Below, one piece after another: positions 1-38,843 of a DNA stretch of 45,287 bases. Source of the DNA: a virus. The first letter of the stretch is position 1; the number at the start of each line of letters is the position of its first letter. The DNA is taken from IMG/VR virus record IMGVR_UViG_3300032053_000150, positions 1 through 45,287 of that record; one strand, 5' to 3'. The notes under the pieces were generated by a model. It did not search any database and had not been told where the DNA came from. It worked only from the letters and a program-made list of their open reading frames with translations. A program made the translations under genes and the position numbers.

Positions 1-494
1 TCAAAGCAGTTCTTGTGCCGGAGATTCATTGTATCCCTGACCAAGAAATACTTTTTGAGTTTCACGACGTAGATGATGTCTCCTGACCGGAGTTTGCTGT
101 TCCAGATGTCCTGGCTGACCGCCACGAGACCTTCTGCAACCATATCGCCGGTTGCTGTAAGGTTCGGCGTGCTGTCAGTCTGATGCCTTTCATTATTATA
201 GCAGGTTATGCTTGCTCTCTTGAATGCTACCACTTCCAAGCCCATATCGACGGAAAGTTCGTAATGCAGGGGGATACTTATCTGGAAAGGTTTGCTGATA
301 AAGGCTTCCAAGGAACGCTCTGTCTCTGCCGTCATTTTACGTTCCTGATACCTCGCAAAGTAAAATATGAATATTGACGTAAGTGCGGTGATGATAAAGC
401 AAGTGAACAATACAATCCCTATCAGTCTAATCCAGAATCTCCGTTGCTTTGACACAATCCGCTCAACCGTTTTTCTTGTCGTCTCGTCGGACAT
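1..494 (-). CDS. 3D-domain (lytic transglycosylase-like) protein, partial at window edge
   Basis: Reading from the ATG at 494 gives 164 codons with no stop before the left edge, so the C-terminus is missing. The start has a strong ribosome binding site (AAGGAGACCACG-ATG) and overlaps the previous gene by 32 bp. Residues about 20-47 form one membrane segment (IGIVLFTCFIITALTSIFIF). After about residue 95 the pattern 'ITCYNNERHQTDSTPNLTATG', then 'GLVAVSQD', 'LRSGDIIYV' and 'VRDTMNLRHKN', matches the 3D domain (double-psi beta-barrel) of MltA/YabE-type peptidoglycan enzymes, including the DTM aspartate. By family it would be a membrane-anchored cell-wall cleaving or binding protein, possibly for lysis. 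The domain call is inferred from motif order; enzymatic activity cannot be judged without the C-terminus. Confidence 0.7.
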   Translation of the reverse strand, partial: MSDETTRKTVERIVSKQRRFWIRLIGIVLFTCFIITALTSIFIFYFARYQERKMTAETERSLEAFISKPFQISIPLHYELSVDMGLEVVAFKRASITCYNNERHQTDSTPNLTATGDMVAEGLVAVSQDIWNSKLRSGDIIYVVKLKKYFLVRDTMNLRHKNCF

Positions 495-831
495 CGTGGT
501 CTCCTTTTTCCTTTGGTCTTACTTGGCTGATAATCAGGTTTACAAAATCCTCCGGAATTGATTTCATCTCTGCTTTCAGGTGGACTTCCTTCCACCATTT
601 GATTGTCTCGGCTTCCGCAACGCTTCGCACTCGCCCTTCCCCTTTAACTCCGCCAGCCACAGCATTAAATACTTCCATCATCAACTTATCAATGATTCTT
701 TTGCGTATCCCTATGACCATAAGCCTCATCATATTCTCGTCCTTAATGACTCGGAGATTATCCTTGTAACTCTCTTTCATATTCCTGACCATTGCATCTA
801 CGGATAACGCAACCGGCAGATTAGGATACAT
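463..831 (-). CDS. hypothetical protein, 122 aa
   Basis: A 122-residue protein of unknown function. Its ATG at 831 is preceded by a good ribosome binding site (AAGGAGAAAAAAG-ATG) that lies inside the small upstream membrane-protein gene, so the two overlap by 11 bp. The protein is charged and probably mostly alpha-helical, with a basic, Asp/Lys-rich C-terminal tail ending DDKKNG. There is no signal peptide or membrane segment. Its 3' end overlaps the start of the 3D-domain gene by 32 bp, so the three genes are probably translated from one message. No family was recognised. Confidence 0.7.
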   Translation of the reverse strand: MYPNLPVALSVDAMVRNMKESYKDNLRVIKDENMMRLMVIGIRKRIIDKLMMEVFNAVAGGVKGEGRVRSVAEAETIKWWKEVHLKAEMKSIPEDFVNLIISQVRPKEKGDHDVRRDDKKNG

Positions 832-946
832 CTTTTTTCTCCTTCAATTTATCAGTCCACTTATCCAGTAGATGCACAAGCAATAGACCGCCGCCTATGC
901 TGACCGCCAGAGTTACTATCAATACTATGAGTGTTCTTGTCCACAC
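821..946 (-). CDS. small single-pass membrane protein, 41 aa
   Basis: A 41-codon ORF starting with GTG at 946 that shares one base with the stop codon of the upstream gene (TAGTG). It ends at TAA 823-821, 11 bp inside the next gene. The peptide has a hydrophobic core (LIVLIVTLAVSIGGGLLLVH, residues 6-25) and a charged tail (DKWTDKLKEKKDVS). It fills what would otherwise be a gap of more than 100 bp in a tightly packed operon. The ribosome binding site is weak, so expression may depend on translational coupling. A small membrane peptide beside a putative cell-wall enzyme could act in lysis, but nothing in the sequence proves it. Confidence 0.55.
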   Translation of the reverse strand: MWTRTLIVLIVTLAVSIGGGLLLVHLLDKWTDKLKEKKDVS

Positions 947-1146
947 TATAATGCCACCGATAAATAGCAAGGATTCTTGCTGATTTTCCTTTCAACAACT
1001 ACGTCGCTGAAATTCGTGAACATAACTTTCCAGACCTCAAAGTTGCCTTCGTCTCTTACATACCTCAAAAGAATAGCCTCGCCTTCCTCTTCCTTTTGAG
1101 TTTCCGGGTCCTTGTAAACCATTACCGCTCTGTTTTTTTCTAACAT
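946..1146 (-). CDS. hypothetical protein, 66 aa
   Basis: The chosen start is the ATG at 1146-1144, which overlaps the upstream stop codon (TAATG) and has GGAATGAACTA upstream. The longer frame beginning at 1182 would overlap the previous gene by 37 bp for no reason. The product is a small soluble protein with an acidic middle (PETQKEEEGE) followed by a beta-like stretch (FEVWKVMFTNFSDVVVERKI). No family was recognised. The overlaps on both sides place it in the accessory operon. Confidence 0.65.
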   Translation of the reverse strand: MLEKNRAVMVYKDPETQKEEEGEAILLRYVRDEGNFEVWKVMFTNFSDVVVERKISKNPCYLSVAL

Positions 1147-1607
1147 TAGTTCATTCCTTTGAACACTTCGTCCAGGAAGCATTCGTCGTTATCGTTTGTA
1201 ACGTCAATCAGTTCGTCCTTGAATATATATTTACCGTCAACGCTCTCGTATTCAATGCTGATATGGAAAGATTTCTCTGGGGTCTTGGCTACAACTAATA
1301 TCCCGGGAACCTTCTCGGCATTGACATCTTTCTCGTAGTCCTCTGGCGTTTTGTATTTATATCTCGTAACCAGCGACGCCATAATGAAGCCGTACAGCTG
1401 TTGTTGTTTCAGATGGGCTACAAGGTCTGTCAGGACACCCTCACGTTCTTCTTTGGTCTCCCATTTGGGTAAGTTGATAAGACCATTGCCATTGGTCAGG
1501 GAATAAGATATCACAAAGGGCGGAAACGTGCCGTCTTTCTGCAACTTGCCTTTCGTCAGATTGGCGACCTTGTGCATTTCAACGAAGACGTCTTTTTTCT
1601 CTGTCAT
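1146..1607 (-). CDS. hypothetical protein, 153 aa
   Basis: A 153-residue soluble protein of unknown function that starts at an ATG with a strong ribosome binding site (AAAGGAGAGGTATC-ATG). It has alternating beta and alpha patterns (FVISYSLTNGNGLINLP, TDLVAHLKQQQLYGFIMASL, HISIEYESVDGKYIFKD). The middle helix ending 'QQQLYGFIMASLVTRYKYK' and the acidic C-terminus (DNDECFLDEVF) are its clearest features. There is no signal peptide, membrane segment or catalytic motif. It sits in the small-gene cluster at the left end, downstream of both consensus promoters. Confidence 0.7.
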   Translation of the reverse strand: MTEKKDVFVEMHKVANLTKGKLQKDGTFPPFVISYSLTNGNGLINLPKWETKEEREGVLTDLVAHLKQQQLYGFIMASLVTRYKYKTPEDYEKDVNAEKVPGILVVAKTPEKSFHISIEYESVDGKYIFKDELIDVTNDNDECFLDEVFKGMN

Positions 1608-1619
1608 GATACCTCTCCT

Positions 1620-1817
1620 TTAATCAATGATTGCTACATTCGGGAACGTATGATAGAGTTCCCTTCTCTTTTCTCTTATCTCATGCTCTGCCTTCGTGAG
1701 TTCAGCATACTTCTCTGGGTGTTTATCTCTTACGTGGTCCCTGATAGTGAACTGTATTTTATTCCCATGTTCCCTGAAAATTTCAGGGCAAAATGGGCAA
1801 GGTCTGATTTCTTTCAT
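1620..1817 (-). CDS. small zinc-finger protein, 65 aa
   Basis: The start was set at the ATG at 1817, which follows AGAGGAGAAAGCG; the upstream in-frame start lacks such a site. The N-terminal sequence has CPFC (from residue 6), followed by a helix with H..DH...H (RDHVRDKHPEKY), giving a C2H2-like zinc-binding arrangement with two Cys and two or more His. The C-terminal half is a charged helix (AEHEIREKRRELY). Such proteins in phages are usually small nucleic-acid or protein binders, often acting on host transcription. The zinc site is read from the motif; the role is not known. Confidence 0.65.
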   Translation of the reverse strand: MKEIRPCPFCPEIFREHGNKIQFTIRDHVRDKHPEKYAELTKAEHEIREKRRELYHTFPNVAIID

Positions 1818-1847
1818 CGCTTTCTCCTCTATTGGTAATAATAACAA

Positions 1848-2369
1848 TTATCTTTCTGTTACGTGCAAATATTTCTCCTGGCGTAACGGAAAACTCATTT
1901 TTATACTAAAATATATTGAATAAATGTTAACATTATAATCATAATTATTGCTATCAGAAACACTCGAAGAAAAAGTTTTCAATCCTATTTCAAATTTAGA
2001 TTTTGAATTTGTTAATCCACAAAACACAGAAACTCGTGGAAAATATTCTACCCTATAATTCAAAGAATCCGCTTCTATTGTAGGTATAAACATCCCTAAT
2101 CCGTAATATTTTGAATTCTCAAATTTACCTACATTTATATATATATCCCGATAATGCACGTTTACTGTACAAAAAGAACTTATGTTGTATCTAAACGGAG
2201 CCGAAAATTCTATCCCGGACATAAGCATAACTCCCTCGCTTACTATTTCGTATTCAGCAAACAAGAAACGTGTATACTGGTCGTTCTTAACCCCGACAGC
2301 CATAGAATCCTGTGCATAAGAAACCACTGAAAAAAGTAATGCTAAAATCATCATTAAAAACGTTTTCAT
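1848..2369 (-). CDS. secreted, probably outer-membrane beta-rich protein
   Basis: A 173-residue protein with a clear Sec signal peptide (MKTFLMMILALLFSVVSYAQ; cleavage likely after SYA or AQ). The mature part has alternating hydrophobic/polar strands rich in Tyr, Phe and Ser (NISSFCTVNVHYRDIYINVG, YYGLGMFIPTIEADSL, NYDYNVNIYSIYFSIKMSF) and resembles a small outer-membrane beta-barrel. The start follows AAAAGGACAAAAAC. The gene is locally AT-rich compared with the tail genes and sits among accessory genes. It could be a surface-modifying 'moron', such as a superinfection-exclusion factor acquired from a bacterium. That role is inference; the signal peptide is directly visible. Confidence 0.6.
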   Translation of the reverse strand: MKTFLMMILALLFSVVSYAQDSMAVGVKNDQYTRFLFAEYEIVSEGVMLMSGIEFSAPFRYNISSFCTVNVHYRDIYINVGKFENSKYYGLGMFIPTIEADSLNYRVEYFPRVSVFCGLTNSKSKFEIGLKTFSSSVSDSNNYDYNVNIYSIYFSIKMSFPLRQEKYLHVTER

Positions 2370-2443
2370 GTTTTTGTCCTTTTTATCTCCTATTCTCTAC
2401 GCCCTGAAGACGTATAGAAAGGGGGATACCCCTCATATATATC

Positions 2444-2731
2444 CTACTGTACTGCTATTCCCTTTGAATTGTAATCATTCCCATCCTCTTCGTTTTCCAA
2501 TAAATATAGACTACAACCTCTTGGGTCGCCCTGATGATATGCCAATATTCCAAACTTTTTTGCTATATTTTGTGCTTTTTCAAAAAGAGTGTTTTCTCGT
2601 TTTTCCTGTTTTGGAGTTAATCCAAAATTACAGTTGTCTTCATCTAACTTATGTAATTGCCTTGATATTTTTCTTAATTCATCATAGCAATAAAGGAAAT
2701 TTCTTAAAGATTCAAAATTTAAGTTATGCAT
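2444..2731 (-). CDS. hypothetical protein with YHQGDPRG motif, 95 aa
   Basis: The start at 2731 (residue 10 of the longer frame, MHNLNFESL) is preferred because AAAAGGATGTGGCAAA lies just upstream and the overlap with the previous gene shrinks to 8 bp. The N-terminal two thirds are helical and charged (LRKISRQLHKLDEDN). The C-terminal part contains 'LAYHQGDPRGCSLYLL', which I associate with small phage-encoded proteins of unknown function. No enzymatic role can be assigned. Confidence 0.65.
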   Translation of the reverse strand: MHNLNFESLRNFLYCYDELRKISRQLHKLDEDNCNFGLTPKQEKRENTLFEKAQNIAKKFGILAYHQGDPRGCSLYLLENEEDGNDYNSKGIAVQ

Positions 2732-3122
2732 TTTGCCACATCCTTTTTTCCAAGACATTTTTTAATGCCAGTGCTTCCCTGTTATCAGGAAAATATTTCA
2801 ATGCCAGATTAACGGCATACTGAACTCCGGTTACATTCCCCCCTCTACTCTTTAATTCAGCCCATGCGACGGCAATCATTTGTTTTATTTCGCTTATGCC
2901 GGGATTATAGTAATCCATATCTCTCATAAGTTCTGTATGCCTTTTTTTGTACGCGCTTAAAATCTCTTCAAATCCGTTTTCATCAATCATTCCAAATTCA
3001 GCCCTATGCATTATCATATAACGAATATATTCATCCAGTCTTGCCCAATTCGGCATTGTATTTATATCTCCTAATGAATCTTCCTTTTTTGTAGTCCACG
3101 ACGCCTTAATTATCCATCTCAT
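2724..3122 (-). CDS. hypothetical protein, 132 aa
   Basis: The ATG at 3122 directly follows the stop of the upstream gene, and the ribosome binding site (GGAGGCAATTAA) lies within the end of that gene. The product is a soluble, mainly helical protein rich in Met, Tyr and Glu (YIRYMIMHRAEFGMIDENGFEE, then SAYKKRHTELMRDMDYYNPG). Its C-terminus (ALKYFPDNREALALKNVLEK) looks like a short TPR-type helix pair. No family was recognised. It is the second gene downstream of the promoter at 3447-3475. Confidence 0.65.
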   Translation of the reverse strand: MRWIIKASWTTKKEDSLGDINTMPNWARLDEYIRYMIMHRAEFGMIDENGFEEILSAYKKRHTELMRDMDYYNPGISEIKQMIAVAWAELKSRGGNVTGVQYAVNLALKYFPDNREALALKNVLEKRMWQNA

Positions 3123-3410
3123 TTAATTGCCTCCCGTATAAATTATCAGCCATATAAGACTTTTGCTTTCTATCTTGCTTATGATTTTTGAATAATATTT
3201 CTCAACAAATCTTTCGACCTTGCCGTGTTTCTTATATTTCCAGCCCAAGAACTCTTTTGCCCCCTGGTTTTCTTCGGTAAGTCCATGCCGTATCTTATAC
3301 ATATTCGGGGCTATAGTCATGTGTATGTTGTCCAGCGTCCCGATAATTACATTATAAAGCATTTTCCTTGCATACTCATTCCTCAAAACCCTGAAATAAA
3401 CGCTTGTCAT
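3123..3410 (-). CDS. hypothetical protein, 95 aa, first gene after a promoter
   Basis: This is the first gene downstream of the consensus promoter at 3447-3475, starting at an ATG with GGGAGGGTAAAA upstream. The protein is basic (YKKHGKVERFVEKYYSKIISK) with no recognised motif, and its C-terminus (SLIWLIIYTGGN) is hydrophobic. The last codons also carry the ribosome binding site of the next gene. Being promoter-proximal it may be made early and in quantity, but that is inferred from position only. Confidence 0.6.
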   Translation of the reverse strand: MTSVYFRVLRNEYARKMLYNVIIGTLDNIHMTIAPNMYKIRHGLTEENQGAKEFLGWKYKKHGKVERFVEKYYSKIISKIESKSLIWLIIYTGGN

Positions 3411-3446
3411 TTTTACCCTCCCGACATCTTATCTACTTCTACTATA

Positions 3447-3475
3447 TATATAGCATAAATTACTTACATTGTCAA
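3447..3475 (-). promoter_or_regulatory. sigma70-type promoter (accessory cluster, inner copy)
   Basis: On the minus strand, -35 TTGACA (3475-3470) and -10 TATATA (3452-3447) are separated by exactly 17 bases. A T/A-rich element (GAAACTTTTTT) lies just upstream of the -35. The element sits in an 84-bp gap between two genes and closely matches the promoter at 5233-5261, including the AACCCTTGACA context. Confidence 0.8.
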
Positions 3476-3494
3476 GGGTTTTCTGAAAAAAGTT

Positions 3495-3881
3495 TCAAAT
3501 CACCAATTTGGCATAACAGACCTTCCAATCGTTTCCGTCGTAGAACTCGGTTTTTTTGACAGGTTTCAGGTAGAACACCCCCAGCCTCTTTCTCAAACAC
3601 CAGACCTTACGACCGCACCGGAGTGCGTGGTCAACTTCGTGGTACACTCCCTTACCAATATATCCTTTATATTCAGAGCAAACCACGGCGTCGTGTTCAC
3701 CGACTGCTCTTAAATAAGGATTCACATCTCCAAGTTCTCCCATATCGCTGTTCGGGTCCAGTACCTTGGCGAACTTTTTCCGCAACCATTTCAGTTCAGA
3801 TTTTTCTCTGGGCGTGTTATAGATACATTTAGAATGAGCATAATAAACTGTTTCTTTTTTCATTGGTTTATTCATAAGCAT
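3495..3881 (-). CDS. nucleoside 2-deoxyribosyltransferase / SLOG-like protein
   Basis: A 128-residue protein with the layout of the nucleoside 2-deoxyribosyltransferase/SLOG-type Rossmann fold. It has an N-terminal strand 'TVYYAHSK' (11-18), a helix, then 'VLDPNSD' (40-46), 'GEHDAVVC' (61-68), 'YIGKGVYHEVDHALRCG' (74-90) with a Glu in the place of the family's catalytic Glu, and a final strand 'KVWCL'. Known members cleave or transfer the base of nucleosides or bind nucleotide-derived ligands. The gene overlaps the previous coding region by 14 bp; a start at the Met at 3863 is also possible. The fold is inferred from motif order. Substrate is unknown: it might serve nucleotide salvage or degrade a host defence signal. 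Confidence 0.5.
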   Translation of the reverse strand: MLMNKPMKKETVYYAHSKCIYNTPREKSELKWLRKKFAKVLDPNSDMGELGDVNPYLRAVGEHDAVVCSEYKGYIGKGVYHEVDHALRCGRKVWCLRKRLGVFYLKPVKKTEFYDGNDWKVCYAKLVI

Positions 3882-4473
3882 ATACCTTAACTTCCTTATC
3901 AGTAAAAATCATATCCAAATCATTATCTGGCATAGGTTTTGATTGCACAGACCGGTCAACCGATTCAATTATTCCTATATCTATAAGGCAGTAATAACTT
4001 ACCGAAAAATCACTCCATCCTTTATAACAATAACAAAAAACAATCTCATCATCACAAATTTCCTTAACATAAGCCATATCTATTTTAGTTTTCCAACTAT
4101 TATCAATATCCTTTCCACGTCCTCGCCATATAACAAAAACCAAATCTCCTACTTCAACTCCCAACATAAATTCATTGAATTCCTTTTTACTCATACGACT
4201 TTCATTGAGTTTTTTACGTTCACGTTTAATTTCTTCGGTTTGTTCAGCATCTCTCTTTTTCTGTTCTGCTTCTCTTTTAATTCTTATTTTTTCAAGCCTA
4301 ATTTTTTCTTTTTCCCACTTAATCCTTTCTTTCTCCTGCTGAACTTCATATCTTTTCTGTGCATACAAATCCCCAATTTTTACATGCAAAAGATTTCTTA
4401 TTCTATAAAGTTTAACCTTTTCTTCTTCGATGAATATTGATGAATAAAGAATCTTTCTAGCCCAGTCTATCAT
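3868..4473 (-). CDS. coiled-coil protein with C-terminal beta domain, 201 aa
   Basis: Residues about 40-95 are a very charged, long helix (EKERIKWEKEKIRLEKIR, KREAEQKKRDAEQTEE), almost certainly a coiled coil. The following part (about 100-185) is beta-rich (VEVGDLVFVIWRGRGKD, DDEIVFCYCYKGWSDF) and resembles a small SH3-like barrel. The ATG at 4473 overlaps the stop of the small upstream ORF (ATGA). The coding sequence is AT-rich compared with the structural genes. Function is unknown; a DNA- or protein-binding role is only a guess from the architecture. Confidence 0.65.
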   Translation of the reverse strand: MIDWARKILYSSIFIEEEKVKLYRIRNLLHVKIGDLYAQKRYEVQQEKERIKWEKEKIRLEKIRIKREAEQKKRDAEQTEEIKRERKKLNESRMSKKEFNEFMLGVEVGDLVFVIWRGRGKDIDNSWKTKIDMAYVKEICDDEIVFCYCYKGWSDFSVSYYCLIDIGIIESVDRSVQSKPMPDNDLDMIFTDKEVKVYAYE

Positions 4474-28093: not shown

Positions 28094-28699
28094 TTACTGG
28101 ATTACGCTTTCGCCAGTTGCTTTTGCTACGCTGAACGGCTGAAATTCCCAGCTGTCTATGCTTGTGATATCGTTATTGTCGTCATCAACCGAACCTTCAA
28201 TCAGCTGACCTTCGTTCACCCATCCACGCAAAGTCATGTACTGGACTTTCGCCGCTTTTCTTACTTCCGGCAGCGTCTCCGGATTCGTCAATATATCTTC
28301 CAGACGAGAAAGCAATGTGCAGTCGCTGATTTCAACTATCGAATCGCGGACCTTTGCCTCTCTTATTTTCGTTTGGAGTTCCGATTGAATCTGTGATGCG
28401 TTCTTTGGCTTTACTTCCACTGTTTCAGTTTCCACCGCTTCGGAAGCAGGCTGCGCGGGATTTGCAGGAACAACATTAGAGTCCTGCGGCGACGTTACCT
28501 CTTCCAGTATCTGGTGATGGATGAAATTGTATATCTCCTGCGTCGCATCGGCTAACTGCGCCTTGCGGAACATCATGCGGAGATTGACTGTCTCGCCAGG
28601 ACCAATCTCTATACCGTTCAGGGTAGAAAGAACAGCCTTGGAATTCTTGGTCTTGTTGCGTACCACTGCGTAAATCTTGTCATCATTAAATTCATTCAT
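28094..28699 (-). CDS. hypothetical protein downstream of capsid, 201 aa
   Basis: The start is the ATG at 28699, with GGAGACAATCC upstream. The longer frame from 28765 would run through the terminator hairpin, which argues against it. The protein has an N-terminal beta-like part ('IYAVVRNKTKNSKAVLSTLN', GIEIGPGETVNLRMMF). A disordered Pro/Glu/Ala linker follows, and then a helical part ('ASQIQSELQTKIREAKVRDS', LEDILTNPETLPEVRKAAK). No family was recognised; a head-associated role is suggested by position only. Confidence 0.6.
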   Translation of the reverse strand: MNEFNDDKIYAVVRNKTKNSKAVLSTLNGIEIGPGETVNLRMMFRKAQLADATQEIYNFIHHQILEEVTSPQDSNVVPANPAQPASEAVETETVEVKPKNASQIQSELQTKIREAKVRDSIVEISDCTLLSRLEDILTNPETLPEVRKAAKVQYMTLRGWVNEGQLIEGSVDDDNNDITSIDSWEFQPFSVAKATGESVIQ

Positions 28700-28743
28700 T
28701 GGATTGTCTCCTTCAATTTTATCTTTGTTGGTTTGAATTTCGC

Positions 28744-28785
28744 AAAAAGGCTTGGGAAGGGGCATTACCGCCCCCTCCCAACCTT
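28744..28785 (-). terminator. strong intrinsic terminator after the major capsid gene
   Basis: On the minus strand GGTTGGGAGGGGGC and GCCCCTTCCCAAGCC form a stem of about 12 bp, mostly G-C, with a six-base loop (GGTAAT) and CCTTTTT after it. It lies 32 bp past the capsid stop and ends the capsid transcript or makes most of it stop there, leaving read-through for neck and tail genes. Confidence 0.88.
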
Positions 28786-28816: not shown

Positions 28817-29540
28817 TTAGAATGGTATGAACGGAGTCTTGCCCGTAACCGTGATTTTGCTGGTAGCTCTGGGGTTGACTACTGCTACGCCGAGTTCTTC
28901 GTAAATGACCCAGCCCAGTCTCAGCCTTTCCGGTTTGTCCGCAGGGATTACGTTTACGTCCTGCCTGATTGGTACTACGCCGGTGAACTCTGGTTCAGCT
29001 ATTACCCAGATTGTGCCTCTCGGCACTACCTTGGATACGAGAATATCCAGTGTCCATAGATGACCTACCAGACCAGTCTGCAGAACTTCGCGCTGTGTAA
29101 CAGGGTCAAATTGGTCTCTCCCGAATTTCATGATATCCGCAAATTCCGAATAGTTCATCACGAACTTCGCTGGAATGAGGTCCCATTTCCCTATTTCAGC
29201 CAGACCCGCAACCATGGCGTCCCTTGTAAGAGATGCGCCGGAAACAGTTGATGGATTGAGAATGGTTGAAGAGCGGTCAACGGCGTTGAAAATGTTTCTG
29301 TCTTCCTCCGCCATCAGGTCAAGTTTCGCTCTCTGCTGCGCCCTGTCAATGAGATTGTAACGTCTTTCTTTGACCTGGCTGAAACGAACTTGGGGATAAG
29401 AAATGATTTCCCATGTTCCCACGGTAATCCTTTCTCCTTCCACAATCGTATCAGGAGCCTGACCTCTTTTACCCACGACTACGACCGGGATTTTTACGTC
29501 CTTGTCATAGACCGGGAGCGCGCCTTGCGGCAGCGGGTCA
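28817..29540 (-). CDS. major capsid protein, exon 2
   Basis: Main part of the HK97-fold-type major capsid protein. After splicing, the two exons give 292 residues. Exon 2 begins with the last base of a Val codon and reads DPLPQGALPVYDKDVKIP, then 'VEGERITVGTWEI', 'RRYNLIDRAQQRAKLDLMAE', 'DLIPAKFVMNYSEFADIMKF', 'LVGHLWTLDILVSKVVPRG' and an end rich in strands (EELGVAVVNPRATSKITV). This order (N-arm, E-loop-like segment, long helix, P-domain, A-domain) is that of small phage capsid proteins. The frame has no start of its own: a GTG inside (29476) is an ordinary Val codon, and upstream in frame a TGA in the intron blocks it. It lies after the decoration gene and before the terminator. Confidence 0.88.
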
Positions 29541-30556
29541 CAATTTGTTACTCATTATTTTTCAATAATGGGTGTGGTCATTTCTGCCACACTCTGTATA
29601 TCGCTATACAGTTCGGACTTTATCTTCGAGCCGGGCATAAAGTCTCTGAGGATTTGATGCTCTCCTATCTTATATAGCATTGTTTGACGAATATATGGAC
29701 GAATAAGATTTGTTAATTTCTTGCTTTCTTCAACTGAAAAATGGATATACATATAAGACCTTCCATCTTTCCTATTATGTGTATGAAGTGAACACTCAAT
29801 ATTCCACTTGTTCTTGAAATATTGTCTTATAAGCATATTCTCTTCATAGCTGAAAGCACAAGTAAATATTCTCATTGTTTTTTTGAGAATATCACGAGAA
29901 CCGTCGTCCATAAACCACACCGCTATACTCAAAGGAGATAACATTTGAAGAATCTTGTCTGAAACAATCTTTATTCCATCCTCGTAAAACATATTGTATA
30001 GATTGGTAAATTCATCATGTACGGAGGTGGTAATGCTAACACCTCTCCATTTACCGTTTTTAACACATAATGAATTACAGAATGGATTTAACGCTTCAAA
30101 TTTCCATTTCAGGTAATCAAATTGTTTCATACAATGAGATTCAATAAATCTTGCTTTCATCACTTTCCTTCCATGTAAAGCAAGACATCCATCTCCCATC
30201 ATAGAACCAATGATTATCTGTTTCTGTGTTTCAGATAGGGTTAAATTCCTCAAACGCCACGATTTTCGTTGAATCGGTATAATGGAAATGTTATATTTGT
30301 GAATATAACGAAGTATTGACTCTTTATTAGAATTCAACATAGACGCAATTTTCTTTGCGCTATACTGCTTTTCACAATAAAGATGAATCAACACTTCTTT
30401 TTCAATAACATTCCTTTTTCCCATAGTTAATTCAACGGAAACCACACACCATCTTTCCTGCTGATTGACTCCACCATAAAATTTTCACCGTAACCAACGG
30501 TATTTATGGATACAGAGTCTTTCCAGCAAATAGCCTGATTACGTGGCTGACATTCA
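29541..30556 (-). mobile_element. group I intron in the major capsid gene
   Basis: A 1016-nt group I intron with visible core pairings. P1 is exon CGTGGT with intron AGCCACG, U-G at the splice site (30557/30556). P4 is TGCTG/CAGCA inside P (TTTGCTGGAAA, 30530-30520) and Q (AATCAGCAGG, 30466-30457). P5 is GACTC/GAGTC with an inner CCATAAA/TTTATGG stem, and P6 is AGGA/TCCT. P7 is GACTTT/AAAGTC in R (CTCAGAGACTTT) and S (AAGATAAAGTCC, 29626-29615). P9 is CTGTATA-GCGA-TATACAG. P10 is GTCA with exon 2 TGAC. The last intron base is G (29541). Splicing restores the capsid frame. The endonuclease gene sits in the P6 loop, and its C-terminal codons run through R, S and P9. P3/P8 were not fully resolved. 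Confidence 0.92.
29555..30424 (-). CDS. LAGLIDADG homing endonuclease in the capsid intron
   Basis: A 289-residue endonuclease, AT-richer than the capsid exons. Residues about 12-45 form a helix-turn-helix ('KQYSAKKIASMLNSNKESIL') that probably helps DNA binding. Two LAGLIDADG motifs follow: 'QIIIGSMMGDGCL' (69-81, D78) and 'SIAVWFMDDGSRD' (166-178, D173/D174). Acidic catalytic residues are present in both, so it looks active as a monomer. By family it cuts intronless capsid alleles at the insertion site and drives intron homing. The ATG at 30424 lies two bases after the stop of the unspliced exon 1 frame. There is no strong ribosome site, so translation may be coupled to unspliced mRNA. Confidence 0.9.
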   Translation of the reverse strand: MGKRNVIEKEVLIHLYCEKQYSAKKIASMLNSNKESILRYIHKYNISIIPIQRKSWRLRNLTLSETQKQIIIGSMMGDGCLALHGRKVMKARFIESHCMKQFDYLKWKFEALNPFCNSLCVKNGKWRGVSITTSVHDEFTNLYNMFYEDGIKIVSDKILQMLSPLSIAVWFMDDGSRDILKKTMRIFTCAFSYEENMLIRQYFKNKWNIECSLHTHNRKDGRSYMYIHFSVEESKKLTNLIRPYIRQTMLYKIGEHQILRDFMPGSKIKSELYSDIQSVAEMTTPIIEK

Positions 30557-30711
30557 ACCACGAGCAGTTTCCTGCCGATACCCTGATAGTCCAGTGTAAG
30601 CCTTATCGGGTTAGCCATAGAACTGGCAAGAGCAATACGCCCTTCTTCCGTCTGGAGCGCCTGTTCAATAAGAAACTCCTTTTGTTCAGGTGTGAGTGCT
30701 TGGTTTTCCAT
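30557..30711 (-). CDS. major capsid protein, exon 1
   Basis: First 51 codons plus two bases of the capsid gene. The ATG at 30711 has a very strong ribosome binding site (AAGGAGGTGAAAATACAA). The encoded N-arm reads MENQALTPEQKEF then 'MANPIRLTLDYQGIGRKLLV', the usual start of this capsid family, and continues in exon 2 as V-DPLPQG. If the intron stayed in, the frame would run 43 more codons to a TAA at 30427 and give a useless truncated protein. The longer upstream frame to 30861 is not used. Confidence 0.88.
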
Positions 30712-30793: not shown

Positions 30794-31336
30794 CTACTCA
30801 GAAACAACATCAGTGATGTTGTCAATCTGCCACCTAAAACCAAGCAAAATACCGCTGGCAAGGTTCGGCACCTGAATTACGTGTCCGACGCACTTTCCAT
30901 TGGCAGCTGCTTTCCCCAGGCTATTGGTCAGTTTTCCTTTATGGGTTCCCGACTCAATAACAAAGAGTTCCTGCCCGATTACGTATACTCCGCCCATCGG
31001 ACTGGCGTCAAAGATGTCCGTGAAGTAGTCGCCGAAAAAAGAGTAATAAGTTGCCTTACCGCTCTTGAGTGTATCCACGTATGAGTCTGCAAAGATACCC
31101 TCTGGTTGAGTCCCGTCAGAAATCGTTACTGCGACGGTCCCATCGACTTCTGCCTTCAACTGGGCAATCATTCCAGCCGCAAATCCTATCGTCTGTTCAC
31201 CGTAAGGTTTCTGCAAACCCAAGTTGCTGGCGCCCAGAAGTTCCGGACTTACTGCTCCGACTTCGGTGTCAATCTCGGAATGGACTTTCTTGTCTCCGAT
31301 TGGCACTCCCTCGTAAAATCCCTGTGTTCTTAACAT
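30794..31336 (-). CDS. putative capsid decoration/stabilisation protein
   Basis: The start at 31336 (MLRTQGFYEG) follows GGGGAGGTGAAAAACAA; the longer frame upstream runs through the ribosome binding site. The 180-residue protein lies immediately before the capsid gene and shares its promoter and type of ribosome site, so it should be made in capsid-like amounts. It is Gly-rich and beta-rich: 'GFAAGMIAQLKAEVDGTVAV', 'GIFADSYVDTLKSGKATYYS', 'FIVESGTHKGKLTN'-like strands, and 'GKCVGHVIQVPNLASGILLG' near the end. This fits small capsid-cementing proteins, though no exact family was recognised. Confidence 0.55.
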   Translation of the reverse strand: MLRTQGFYEGVPIGDKKVHSEIDTEVGAVSPELLGASNLGLQKPYGEQTIGFAAGMIAQLKAEVDGTVAVTISDGTQPEGIFADSYVDTLKSGKATYYSFFGDYFTDIFDASPMGGVYVIGQELFVIESGTHKGKLTNSLGKAAANGKCVGHVIQVPNLASGILLGFRWQIDNITDVVSE

Positions 31337-31373
31337 TTGTTTTTCACCTCCCCCCCCTGTGGATTCCAGGGAA

Positions 31374-31410
31374 GGTATCTTCCTTGGCAACCAAGGAATA
31401 CTACGATACC
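31374..31410 (-). promoter_or_regulatory. stable stem-loop in the capsid-operon 5' leader
   Basis: Minus strand GGTATC, a six-base bulge (GTAGTA), TTCCTTGG-TTG-CCAAGGAA and GATACC form a nested 14-bp hairpin. It lies between the promoter at 31431-31459 and the decoration gene's ribosome site. Such 5' hairpins commonly protect abundant phage mRNAs. Confidence 0.65.
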
Positions 31411-35772: not shown

Positions 35773-36147
35773 TCATTCTTTGCTTGGCATAATTTTTTCC
35801 ATATCTGGTCTTGGCAATTTGGGTTTCTCTGGCATTTTCCACGGTTTGCCTTCCAGTTCCGACGATGGTTGAGTGAACGTCATTGGTCGTTCAGGAACTT
35901 CTTCTCCCAGATACTTAAACAATTCCATAAAGTTTATATTCCGTGTCCTATCCCACTGGGTAGGATTCTTCAAGACCTCGGTTATCATATCTTCAAAGAA
36001 CGTACGAAGTTTCTTGTCAAGCGTCGCTTCATCAACCTCAACGCCTTTTTCTTTCAGGTAATTCATAAGATTACCGTACTTACCTACCGGCTTTTCCTGA
36101 CCCTTCGGTTGAAGTTTCTTGTAATCTATGTTCGGTAAACTTTTCAT
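35773..36147 (-). CDS. hypothetical head protein with LPNIDY N-terminus, 124 aa
   Basis: Overlaps the portal stop by 4 bp. The first residues MKSLPNIDYKKLQ match the starts of three other proteins of this head module. The body has helices (NYLKEKGVEVDEATLDKKLR, TFFEDMITEVLKNPTQWDRT) and a Pro-rich, charged tail (KPWKMPEKPKLPRPDMEKIM). No family was recognised. The shared N-terminal peptide and position suggest a small head or prohead component, perhaps targeted to the prohead. Confidence 0.6.
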   Translation of the reverse strand: MKSLPNIDYKKLQPKGQEKPVGKYGNLMNYLKEKGVEVDEATLDKKLRTFFEDMITEVLKNPTQWDRTRNINFMELFKYLGEEVPERPMTFTQPSSELEGKPWKMPEKPKLPRPDMEKIMPSKE

Positions 36148-38843
36148 ATCGTCTCCGGTATACCTTCCGCTCCGCCACCACCTGGTCCACCTGGCAGTTC
36201 AGGGGCGCCACCTGGACGTTCCGGCGCTTCTATTCCCACCATTCCTTCTCCGCCGCCCATGCCTCCGCCCAGTTCTGGAATAGGTATTTTGCCTTCATCT
36301 TTCGTATGTGCAGCCGGGGGCAATTTTTCTTTCTTATCTTCTTCATATTCTTTCTGTACCATCTTTTTCTCTTTCTCGTAGTTAAGACCGATATAATTAA
36401 AGAACGTCTGCTTGGACAACACACCTGTTTTCATTAACTCTTTCATCAGCTGCTTCATCTGGGTGTCGTCTTTGAGGTTCATGAACTCAAATTCAATTTC
36501 GGGGATTATGTATTCCTCGTCTCCCCACTCGTTTATCCGCTTGAATTCCTGCTGTATGGCAACCGGCTTGAATACGTAGTTCTTAACCCAGTCTTTCAGG
36601 ATTTGCTGGTTGCGAAGATACCGGTTTACGAGTATCCGCAGGGCAACACTGGCTGTCGCAAAGTTGGGTCCTGAACCGTCAATGATTGTCTTGGAACCAA
36701 GCAGTGCCGCCGTAATCTCTTTATCTATCCAGTCGTACTCTCTATCGAGAGGCAAGACTTTGCCGGCAGATGACACGTAATCAAAACTGATTGCGTGATG
36801 ATAAAAAAACCAGCTGGAAAGGTCATAGTTCAATTCATCAAAAGCGTCCTTTGCAGCCTGTATCGCTTCCGGAGTCGCCGGTATCTGGTCAGTTCCTACC
36901 TTGACCACCTTAATCGGCGTTATATGCCGTTCTGCGATGGCTATTTGCGCCCTGCGCAAGATATCCTTGTATATAAGTGGTTTAAACGCCCTGAACATAA
37001 TCGGCGTGCCTACGGTTTCGTACGGCGACAATTTATACGCGATATGGCTGACCCTGAACTGATTGAGAGGAATTTTCTCTCCACGCGCAATCAAGCTGGC
37101 TATCCTGCCGCCCTGCAACTGGGCAAGTTGATTATAAAGTTCTCTCGGCTGCCTTGACTGGACAATGCGTTTCATATTATCATCAGGGTCAAGTTTCAGG
37201 ACAGGCTCATCTATAAGCATTGATTTCTCTACTTCCACGAAATCAGGATTAAGCAGTACAAACCGCGTCCAGATTCCTTTGTCTCCGTTCCACTCACCAA
37301 ACGGAAATACATTGCCTATTTTCCAGTATTCAAGGTTGATGTCCAAGAGCAGCTTCTCGCCCCGGAGAACGTCAAAGAACAGGATTTCAAAGAACTTCTT
37401 TATCTTTTTATCCTCGCAGGTAATATGACAACTTGTAAGCGGAAACTCACTGTGAAGGTCTATGAGGTTTCCTATTATGCCGTCAGTATTATGAACAATT
37501 GCCCCATTAGCAACAAACGAATTATTACCTGCTACGTTGAGGTTATAAACATATCCACTGTAATCAAAAGTTCTTATTTTTTGTATCCTTGAAACCATCC
37601 AATCTTTAAACCACCAATGGTGAACATTATTCCTACCCTTATCATCCATTTCCGGTATTCTGCCAATTAGCTGTTGTGCGGCATACGGCGGCACTCTCAC
37701 TTGCCATGCCTTGTATATTCTCTTTTCCCCCTTGTAATTGCAAGAAGAATTATATGCAAATATCGTTGAATCCATACCGCAAGAAACAAACAATTGTTGC
37801 ACTTGACTCGCCAAATTTCTTGAAGCAAGATTTATAACTATTTGTCCCGGATTGGTATTCCCCTTTCTCTCTATGTGACCATCTCCATCCACAAATGCTC
37901 TTAAAAATGCCATTTTAACATTATCAGGCATGTAAAATATTCTGGAATTCAAGGTTTTTGTCTTTGCTCTTCCATCGCACCAATGTTTAAAATATTTCAT
38001 TACTTCTTTGTTGTTTATCCTTAACTCAATGCATCCTCTTCCATAGGAATATTCATTGACCTTTTTACCGAATTTTTTGAAACATATATCTTTAACTATG
38101 GGTATTAAAGTATCTTTCTCTTTTTCGGCAAAAGAAAATCTCACCGCCTCTCTGTATTTTCCTTCCGATAAACTTCCTTCTGCCGCATAATATCCCAACA
38201 ATAAAGCCTCGTCTTCAGTTAATATCTCAACGTCATCAAAATCATTGTTATATACTTTTATCTTAGGACTTAAAAGAAAATCCCCTTCTTTTATATTAAT
38301 AGCTAATTCCCATCGTTGCAATGGTTCTATTGTTGTCTGTTTCCATCTCCATTGGTCAGCCCATTTCGGCAACATATAGAAAGGATGGTTGCGTGTTATA
38401 GTAGTTTCCGGTAAACCAACCGCTTTAATTGCTATCATTTTTGTTTTAACTTTTTTCTTAAATACTTCATTTACAATCCCTATAGTTCCATCTTCCGTTA
38501 TAACTCTTTCTCCAATTTTTACTTTCTCTATTTCTTTCAACGTACCGTCTGCCATCAATACTGTGCTTCCGGGAACAAAACACTTGTAAAAATGCCTCGC
38601 CCACTGGTTTATTTCCCTGGTTTTGGTAGGCAGCTGCAAATTGATTTTTTCAAAGAGCGGATGATAGAATTGCGGTGCCTGCCGGACAATCCCCGGCTTC
38701 ATGGACGCAGCGTTTTTTATCAGCGAATTTAACCGGGACTTGGACATATCAACTATGGAAGATTCCTGCCGCATCTCCTTCCAGTAGTTTTTGACTTCCT
38801 TGAACCTGTCGTTTAAGTTCGTTGTGATTATTTCGCCTGGCAT
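36144..38843 (-). CDS. portal protein (contains intein)
   Basis: An 899-residue precursor; the portal itself is 534 residues after removal of the intein (residues 88-452). The N-extein ends 'EINQWARHFYK' and the C-extein starts 'TDGIIGNLIDLHSEFPLT'. Conserved portal-like regions follow: 'LNPDFVEVEKSMLIDEPVL', 'QFRVSHIAYKLSPYETVGT', 'MFRAFKPLIYKDILRRAQI', 'YDWIDKEITAALLGSKTII' and 'ASVALRILVNRYLRNQQI', the wing-stem-crown order of large myovirus portals. The end is Gly/Pro-rich (LGGGMGGGEGMVGIEAPERP). Twelve copies form the DNA channel and packaging motor dock. The terminase is not seen in the window. It is followed by the 124-aa head gene with an ATGA overlap. Confidence 0.85.
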   Translation of the reverse strand: MPGEIITTNLNDRFKEVKNYWKEMRQESSIVDMSKSRLNSLIKNAASMKPGIVRQAPQFYHPLFEKINLQLPTKTREINQWARHFYKCFVPGSTVLMADGTLKEIEKVKIGERVITEDGTIGIVNEVFKKKVKTKMIAIKAVGLPETTITRNHPFYMLPKWADQWRWKQTTIEPLQRWELAINIKEGDFLLSPKIKVYNNDFDDVEILTEDEALLLGYYAAEGSLSEGKYREAVRFSFAEKEKDTLIPIVKDICFKKFGKKVNEYSYGRGCIELRINNKEVMKYFKHWCDGRAKTKTLNSRIFYMPDNVKMAFLRAFVDGDGHIERKGNTNPGQIVINLASRNLASQVQQLFVSCGMDSTIFAYNSSCNYKGEKRIYKAWQVRVPPYAAQQLIGRIPEMDDKGRNNVHHWWFKDWMVSRIQKIRTFDYSGYVYNLNVAGNNSFVANGAIVHNTDGIIGNLIDLHSEFPLTSCHITCEDKKIKKFFEILFFDVLRGEKLLLDINLEYWKIGNVFPFGEWNGDKGIWTRFVLLNPDFVEVEKSMLIDEPVLKLDPDDNMKRIVQSRQPRELYNQLAQLQGGRIASLIARGEKIPLNQFRVSHIAYKLSPYETVGTPIMFRAFKPLIYKDILRRAQIAIAERHITPIKVVKVGTDQIPATPEAIQAAKDAFDELNYDLSSWFFYHHAISFDYVSSAGKVLPLDREYDWIDKEITAALLGSKTIIDGSGPNFATASVALRILVNRYLRNQQILKDWVKNYVFKPVAIQQEFKRINEWGDEEYIIPEIEFEFMNLKDDTQMKQLMKELMKTGVLSKQTFFNYIGLNYEKEKKMVQKEYEEDKKEKLPPAAHTKDEGKIPIPELGGGMGGGEGMVGIEAPERPGGAPELPGGPGGGGAEGIPETI
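37488..38582 (-). mobile_element. intein with LAGLIDADG endonuclease inside the portal protein
   Basis: Residues 88-452 of the portal precursor (365 aa). Block A 'CFVPGSTVLMADGTLKEIE' starts with the Cys nucleophile. Block B 'TTITRNHPFY' has the T..H motif. Endonuclease blocks are 'LLLGYYAAEGSL' (about 214-225) and 'FLRAFVDGDGHIE' (about 313-325), both with acidic residues. Block F is 'YVYNLNVAGNNSFVANG' and block G is 'GAIVHN' with the usual His-Asn end. The next extein residue is Thr. All splicing residues are present, so it should be active and mobile. The insert is visibly AT-richer than the exteins. Confidence 0.95.

What the first reader, a model, noticed from the sequence alone, without database searches (positions are those of the whole stretch)
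29541..30556. Major capsid gene is split by a self-splicing group I intron with resolvable core and exact splice sites
Seen directly: P1, P4, P5, P6, P7, P9 and P10 pairings with P/Q/R/S-like sequences, U-G pair at the 5' site and terminal G. Removing 30556-29541 joins exon 1 and exon 2 in frame and restores the expected 'LLVVDPLPQG' passage. Automatic annotation would report a truncated capsid gene and a fragment with a false GTG start. Group I introns are known in phage genes, but I know few in a major capsid gene, a late, very abundant transcript.
Basis: partly seen in the sequence, partly recalled or inferred. Interest (0 to 1): 0.75.

Follow-up and report, generated by a model that had tools for sequence, protein, structure and literature searches.

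The report
Homing intron splits phage capsid gene
A virus of bacteria carries, inside the gene for its main shell protein, a self-removing RNA insert that encodes its own DNA-cutting enzyme; such inserts are known, but this one lacks a normally conserved RNA helix, and one relative of this virus seems to carry nine inserts in the same gene.

Summary
Confirmed. The minus-strand major capsid gene (exon 1 30711-30557, exon 2 29540-28817) is cut by a 1016-nt group I intron at exactly 30556-29541. Close relatives (95% identical protein) have the same site uninterrupted. Rfam's general model fails its cut-off, but two models built from other introns hit each half of the core once in the window (E about 3e-15 and 3e-14). 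P1 (U.G at the site), P10, P3-P7, P9 and the terminal G are present. The intron encodes an I-SceI-like LAGLIDADG endonuclease.

An rRNA intron (L306) and a relative's capsid intron also lack it, so an assembly error is unlikely. (2) Exon 1's frame runs through the intron's 5' half and stops just before the endonuclease ATG, suggesting coupled translation; the only other case among 20 introns is also in a capsid gene. (3) In this phage-G-like clade the capsid gene is an intron target: L007 has an intron at codon 199, and L307 appears to have nine, one at that same site.

Capsid-gene introns with LAGLIDADG genes are already known (mycobacteriophage LittleE). Splicing was not tested. Verdict: real; a variant of a known kind.

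The parts
30557..30711 (-). Major capsid protein, exon 1 (codons 1-52 up to the second base of codon 52); preceded by the Shine-Dalgarno-like AAAGGAGGTG
   Evidence: 5' part homologous to uninterrupted capsid genes
29541..30556 (-). Group I intron, 1016 nt, 34% G+C against 50% in the exons; last exon base U, last intron base G
28817..29540 (-). Major capsid protein, exon 2
   Evidence: PHROG 2522, 3e-61; NF042927, 133 bits
30557..30562 (-). P1, exon side (CGUGGU)
   Evidence: pairs with 30547-30542, U.G at the splice site
30542..30547 (-). P1, internal guide sequence (GCCACG)
30548..30551 (-). P10, intron side (GUCA), pairs with the first four bases of exon 2 (UGAC, 29540-29537)
30533..30538 (-). 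P3 5' strand (UCAGGC)
   Evidence: P3 covaries across the family; here 5 of 6 pairs with 29636-29631
30451..30542 (-). 5' catalytic domain: P3 5' strand, P4 (UGCUG 30528-30524 / CAGCA 30463-30459), P5 (GACUC 30519-30515 / GAGUC 30471-30467), start of P6 (GG 30458-30457)
   Evidence: model R2, 71.3 bits, E 3.5e-15, only hit in window
30427..30429 (-). TAA that ends the exon 1 reading frame after about 42 codons inside the intron, 2 nt before the endonuclease ATG
29555..30424 (-). LAGLIDADG_2 homing endonuclease ORF (289 aa from ATG; 296 aa from GTG 30445), in L6 and running on through P7 and P9; motifs IIIGSMMGDG and IAVWFMDDG
   Evidence: PF03161 1.5e-37; I-SceI family in PDB, E about 1e-9 to 3e-10; PHROG 11023
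29592..29651 (-). 3' catalytic domain: P6 3' strand (CC), P7 (GACUUUAU 29644-29637 / AUAAAGUC 29623-29616), P3 3' strand (GCCCGG 29636-29631), J8/7, P9 (29611-29594, GCGA loop)
   Evidence: model R1, 61.9 bits, E 2.9e-14, only hit in window
29628..29630 (-). CUC, the three bases left where the P8 hairpin stands in relatives
   Evidence: shortest of 38 R-to-S stretches, 33 nt against 38-106; model position gap
29554..29592 (-). P9.1 (GUGUGG/CCACAC, 29592-29572) and P9.2 (AUUAUU-GAAA-AAUAAU, 29569-29554) hairpins

Best explanation
A mobile group I intron of a P8-less type sits in the major capsid gene of a phage-G-like tailed phage. Proposed working: the transcript folds into the ribozyme; P1 places the U at 30557, an external guanosine bound at P7 cuts there, and P10 and the terminal G align exon 2 for joining, giving an intact 292-aa capsid protein. 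The LAGLIDADG enzyme made from unspliced RNA cuts intron-less capsid alleles at the LVV/DPLP codons, and repair copies the intron in. Shown by sequence: exact site, core pairings, endonuclease family, intron-less alleles. Inferred: splicing, endonuclease activity, and translation of the endonuclease by coupling to exon 1 (its frame stops 2 nt before the ATG, and no Shine-Dalgarno is visible there).
For: Exact in-frame junction and uninterrupted close homologues. Two independent core models hit once each, in the right order on the right strand. Compensated P7 change (ACUUUA/UAAAGU against the usual ACUAUA/UAUAGU). P1, P10 and terminal G flush. I-SceI-like enzyme with both acidic motif residues kept. 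L007, 95% identical in capsid protein, has a group I intron at another site with an unrelated endonuclease. Intron sites lie in conserved capsid segments (permutation p about 0.006).
Against: P8 is missing and P3 has an A.C mismatch; Rfam's model stays far below its cut-off. No RNA reads, no in vitro splicing, one metagenomic contig only. The capsid gene could in principle be inactive.
Confidence: 0.9

Rival explanations
1. Decayed group I intron: loss of P8 has stopped splicing and the capsid gene on this contig is dead or depends on helper alleles.
For: P8 present in 23 of 24 aligned relatives is absent here, P3 has one mismatch.
Against: All other core helices, splice sites and both exon frames are intact; P8 is also absent in L306, an intron in a 23S rRNA gene that passes Rfam's cut-off (59.1 bits) and must splice for a working ribosome unless other rRNA copies exist, and in L307 intron 1. 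The capsid gene is essential.
Confidence: 0.06
2. Assembly artefact: the P8 hairpin or the whole insert is an error of the contig.
For: Single short-read metagenome contig; no read data available.
Against: Insert is a coherent intron with exact P1/P10 matched to this site; the endonuclease ORF stays open through the P8-less stretch; other P8-less cases exist.
Confidence: 0.02
3. Intein, removed from the protein instead of the RNA.
For: LAGLIDADG enzyme inside a coding gene; the same window has a true intein in the portal gene.
Against: Exon 1 frame meets TAA at 30429, the endonuclease is in another frame than exon 1, no Hint or intein-splicing domain matches in this ORF, and RNA core models hit.
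Confidence: 0.01
4. Stand-alone endonuclease gene that broke the capsid gene without any intron.
For: Relatives carry free-standing LAGLIDADG genes just downstream of the capsid gene.
Against: Complete intron anatomy around the ORF.
Confidence: 0.01

Closest known systems
Major capsid gene intron of mycobacteriophage LittleE (Cluster J; PMC3706429)
   Same: About 820-nt, most likely group I, intron in an HK97-fold major capsid gene of a tailed phage; U before and G at the end; encoded enzyme described there as related to the LAGLIDADG I-CreI
   Different: Unrelated phage; there the endonuclease is on the opposite strand and splicing was shown by RT-PCR and N-terminal sequencing. Here the enzyme is I-SceI-like LAGLIDADG_2, co-directional, overlapping the 3' core, and P8 is missing
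Capsid gene intron of lactococcal phage Tuc2009 (named in PMC3706429)
   Same: Group I intron in a capsid gene
   Different: Not compared at sequence level here
L007 capsid intron (IMGVR_UViG_3300031873_000129)
   Same: Same intron family, same capsid gene, same overlap of endonuclease ORF with the 3' core, same stop-start arrangement
   Different: Codon 199 instead of 52; different endonuclease (weak DUF790 and Phage_endo_I similarity, below curated cut-offs); has P8; intron seems to end in A
L306, 23S rRNA intron of an Omnitrophota MAG (JAGUYA010000162.1)
   Same: Same family, no P8, nearly the same 3' end (CCGAACTGCATAGCGATATGCAGAG, GAGTAACAAAATTG)
   Different: rRNA gene, no endonuclease, P3 fully paired
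Group I introns of Jug and crAss-like huge phages (PMC12363816, PMC7886860)
   Same: Metagenomic large phages with many group I introns and endonucleases in essential genes
   Different: Other phage clades; the genes named there include terL and nrdD; capsid introns were not mentioned in the passages read

Membership tests
Group I intron | U.G pair in P1 at the 5' splice site and terminal G | tested here: met
   CGUGGU/GCCACG and ...AACAAATTG at 29541
Group I intron | P10 aligning the 3' exon | tested here: met
   UGAC/GUCA flush with P1
Group I intron | P3, P4, P5, P6 core with conserved P and Q segments | tested here: met
   model R2 71.3 bits, E 3.5e-15; P3 5 of 6 pairs
Group I intron | P7 guanosine site with conserved R and S segments | tested here: met
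   model R1 61.9 bits, E 2.9e-14
Group I intron | P8 hairpin of the P3-P8 domain | tested here: not met
   only CUC left between P3' and J8/7; also absent in L306, which passes Rfam's cut-off, so treated as a P8-less variant
Group I intron | Rfam RF00028 at gathering score | tested here: not met
   none at gathering; 22.2 and 11.9 bits in two pieces split by the ORF
Group I intron | Guanosine-dependent splicing | not testable with these tools
   needs RNA
LAGLIDADG homing endonuclease (PF03161) | Family profile over its cut-off with both LAGLIDADG motifs and acidic residues | tested here: met
   129.6 bits against 25, full profile 1-168; I-SceI match
LAGLIDADG homing endonuclease (PF03161) | Cleavage of the intron-less allele | not testable with these tools
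   intron-less alleles exist
Intein | In-frame insert with Hint splicing domain | tested here: not met
   TAA at 30429-30427; no Hint domain

The most novel reading that the evidence does not exclude
The capsid gene of this phage-G-like clade is a recurrent target of group I introns, up to nine in one gene (L307), and part of them use a working ribozyme core without P8; in two of them the endonuclease is made only by coupled translation from unspliced capsid RNA.
Probability: 0.45. Interest if true: 0.7.

Novelty: new variant of a known kind. Interest (0 to 1): 0.5.

Why it matters
It shows how annotation and the standard RNA model miss introns in an essential, highly expressed phage gene: none of the introns in this gene in the window, L007 or L307 reaches Rfam's cut-off. 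If the P8-less core splices, it lowers the known minimum of the group I fold. The capsid gene of this clade gives a natural series (no intron, one, nine) for asking what introns cost a phage in a late, abundant mRNA.

Tried and rejected
Rfam at gathering: no hit, explained by the 800-nt ORF between the two core halves and the missing P8. Relatives of the endonuclease in viral contigs by peptide pattern: none; in phage records only 25-32% identical matches. Search for P8-less cores: 0 in viral contigs with a strict pattern, 1 in genomes (L306), 3 with a looser pattern, of which L307 is a real intron and L308/L309 show no Q segment upstream and are taken as chance. Downstream LAGLIDADG genes in L036, L045, L046, L055, L065, L076 were tested as possible capsid introns and are free-standing, after the capsid stop codon. 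L326, whose match ends at residue 248, looks like a chimeric contig, not an intron. Intein and stand-alone-gene readings rejected (see rivals). Subgroup (IA, IB ...) was not assigned: not tested. Literature search for natural group I introns lacking P8 found none in the held open-access library, which is not proof of absence.

Full report
What was checked. The window is a 45,287-bp linear virus record. On the minus strand, ORF 30794-31390, the capsid gene and ORF 28094-28765 follow each other. Exon 1 starts at ATG 30711 behind AAAGGAGGTG. Joining 30557 to 29540 gives one open frame of 292 residues with LLVVDPLPQG. Exon 2 is an HK97-fold major capsid protein (NF042927 133 bits, cut-off 80; PHROG 2522 3e-61). 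The nearest described relative is gp27 of Bacillus phage G (64% identity). In viral contigs the capsid is up to 95% identical.

The insert is extra. L003, L004, L005, L006, L007 and L016 run straight through the junction without any additional base. Of 159 fetched capsid loci (some fetched twice) only L007 is interrupted. The search ranks uninterrupted genes higher, so interrupted ones are under-sampled.

It is a group I intron. Rfam's Intron_gpI does not reach its cut-off: it gives two weak pieces, 22.2 and 11.9 bits, separated by the ORF. I collected phage introns by two short core motifs and built models of the 5' half (17 sequences) and the 3' half (24 sequences), both without the window. 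Each model hits the window once, on the right strand and in the right order: 30542-30451, 71.3 bits, E 3.5e-15, and 29651-29592, 61.9 bits, E 2.9e-14. E-values from these models are rough. P1 is CGUGGU with GCCACG, with U.G at the site; P10 is UGAC with GUCA, flush; the intron ends in G. The junction could slide by up to three bases, but only this register has U before and G at the end. The P1/P10 combination arises by chance in about 0.3-0.4% of trials.

The missing P8. Between the P7 strands relatives have P3' plus a covarying P8 hairpin (23 of 24 aligned sequences). The window has GCCCGG, which pairs with UCAGGC in five of six positions as P3, and then only CUC. It is the shortest of 38 such stretches. 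A strict pattern search found a second P8-less intron in a 23S rRNA gene of an Omnitrophota genome, L306, which passes Rfam's cut-off and has nearly the same 3' end. A looser pattern found L307 intron 1, with P3 AUUUUAU/AUAAAAU and no P8. So the lack of P8 recurs; whether it needs a helper is unknown. My literature searches found no report of natural group I introns without P8, in an open-access library only.

The endonuclease. The intron ORF is LAGLIDADG_2 (1.5e-37) with both motifs (IIIGSMMGDG, IAVWFMDDG) and matches I-SceI structures. It starts in L6 and, unlike 18 of the 20 endonuclease introns compared, runs more than 60 nt past P7; only L007 shares that. The exon 1 frame stays open for about 42 codons into the intron and ends TAA-CT-ATG at the endonuclease start. 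In L007 the same is TAA-T-ATG. No other of the 20 introns has this. With no visible Shine-Dalgarno before the ATG, translation by coupling to exon 1 in unspliced RNA is the simplest reading. This is inference, noticed after the fact. [quoted passage not shown] here ribosomes would cross the 5' half of the core.

The capsid gene as a target. L007 carries a different intron after codon 199 with an unrelated endonuclease. L307, a 158,834-bp record at 23% G+C, has a capsid gene in ten pieces. Nine insertions of 153-815 nt, with each upstream exon piece ending in T and eight of nine inserts ending in G, splice on paper to an intact 280-aa capsid protein, up to 81% identical to uninterrupted ones. 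Several have clear P1 and P10 (intron 1: seven and eight pairs); three of nine hit my 3' model (E 2e-6 to 2e-5). Junctions of introns 5 and 9 are less certain. One of the nine is at the same codon as L007's and carries an endonuclease that looks similar by eye. In the half of that genome I fetched, the capsid gene is the most fragmented place. The ten sites lie in more conserved capsid segments than chance (p about 0.006), as expected of homing. More distant relatives have free-standing LAGLIDADG genes right behind the capsid gene.

Known or new. Group I introns in capsid genes are known: LittleE, with a LAGLIDADG-related enzyme and RT-PCR proof, and Tuc2009 (PMC3706429). So the kind is known. 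What I did not find described is the P8-less core, the stop-start arrangement shared by two capsid introns, and a capsid gene with nine introns. Splicing itself remains untested here.

Noticed in passing
window 36144-38843 (-): Portal gene carries an in-frame intein (Intein_splicing, LAGLIDADG_3, intein_Cterm) about residues 88-453; so two neighbouring head genes of this phage host different self-removing elements.
   Followed up: partly
L307 (IMGVR_UViG_3300031992_000022), reverse strand 433-3960 of the locus: Major capsid gene apparently split into ten exons by nine small A+T-rich group I-like introns that Rfam does not detect.
   Followed up: partly
L007 4597-5525; L307 reverse strand 3675-3900: Two capsid introns whose best splice register ends in A instead of G.
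   Followed up: no
L306 95-330: P8-less, endonuclease-less group I intron in a 23S rRNA gene of an Omnitrophota MAG.
   Followed up: partly
L036, L045, L046, L055, L065, L076, just 3' of the capsid gene: Free-standing LAGLIDADG endonuclease genes directly after the capsid gene in distant relatives.
   Followed up: partly
L251 reverse strand about 4617 and 5707: Two group I R-S cores about 1.1 kb apart on one contig, the first with a very short P8 (38 nt).
   Followed up: no
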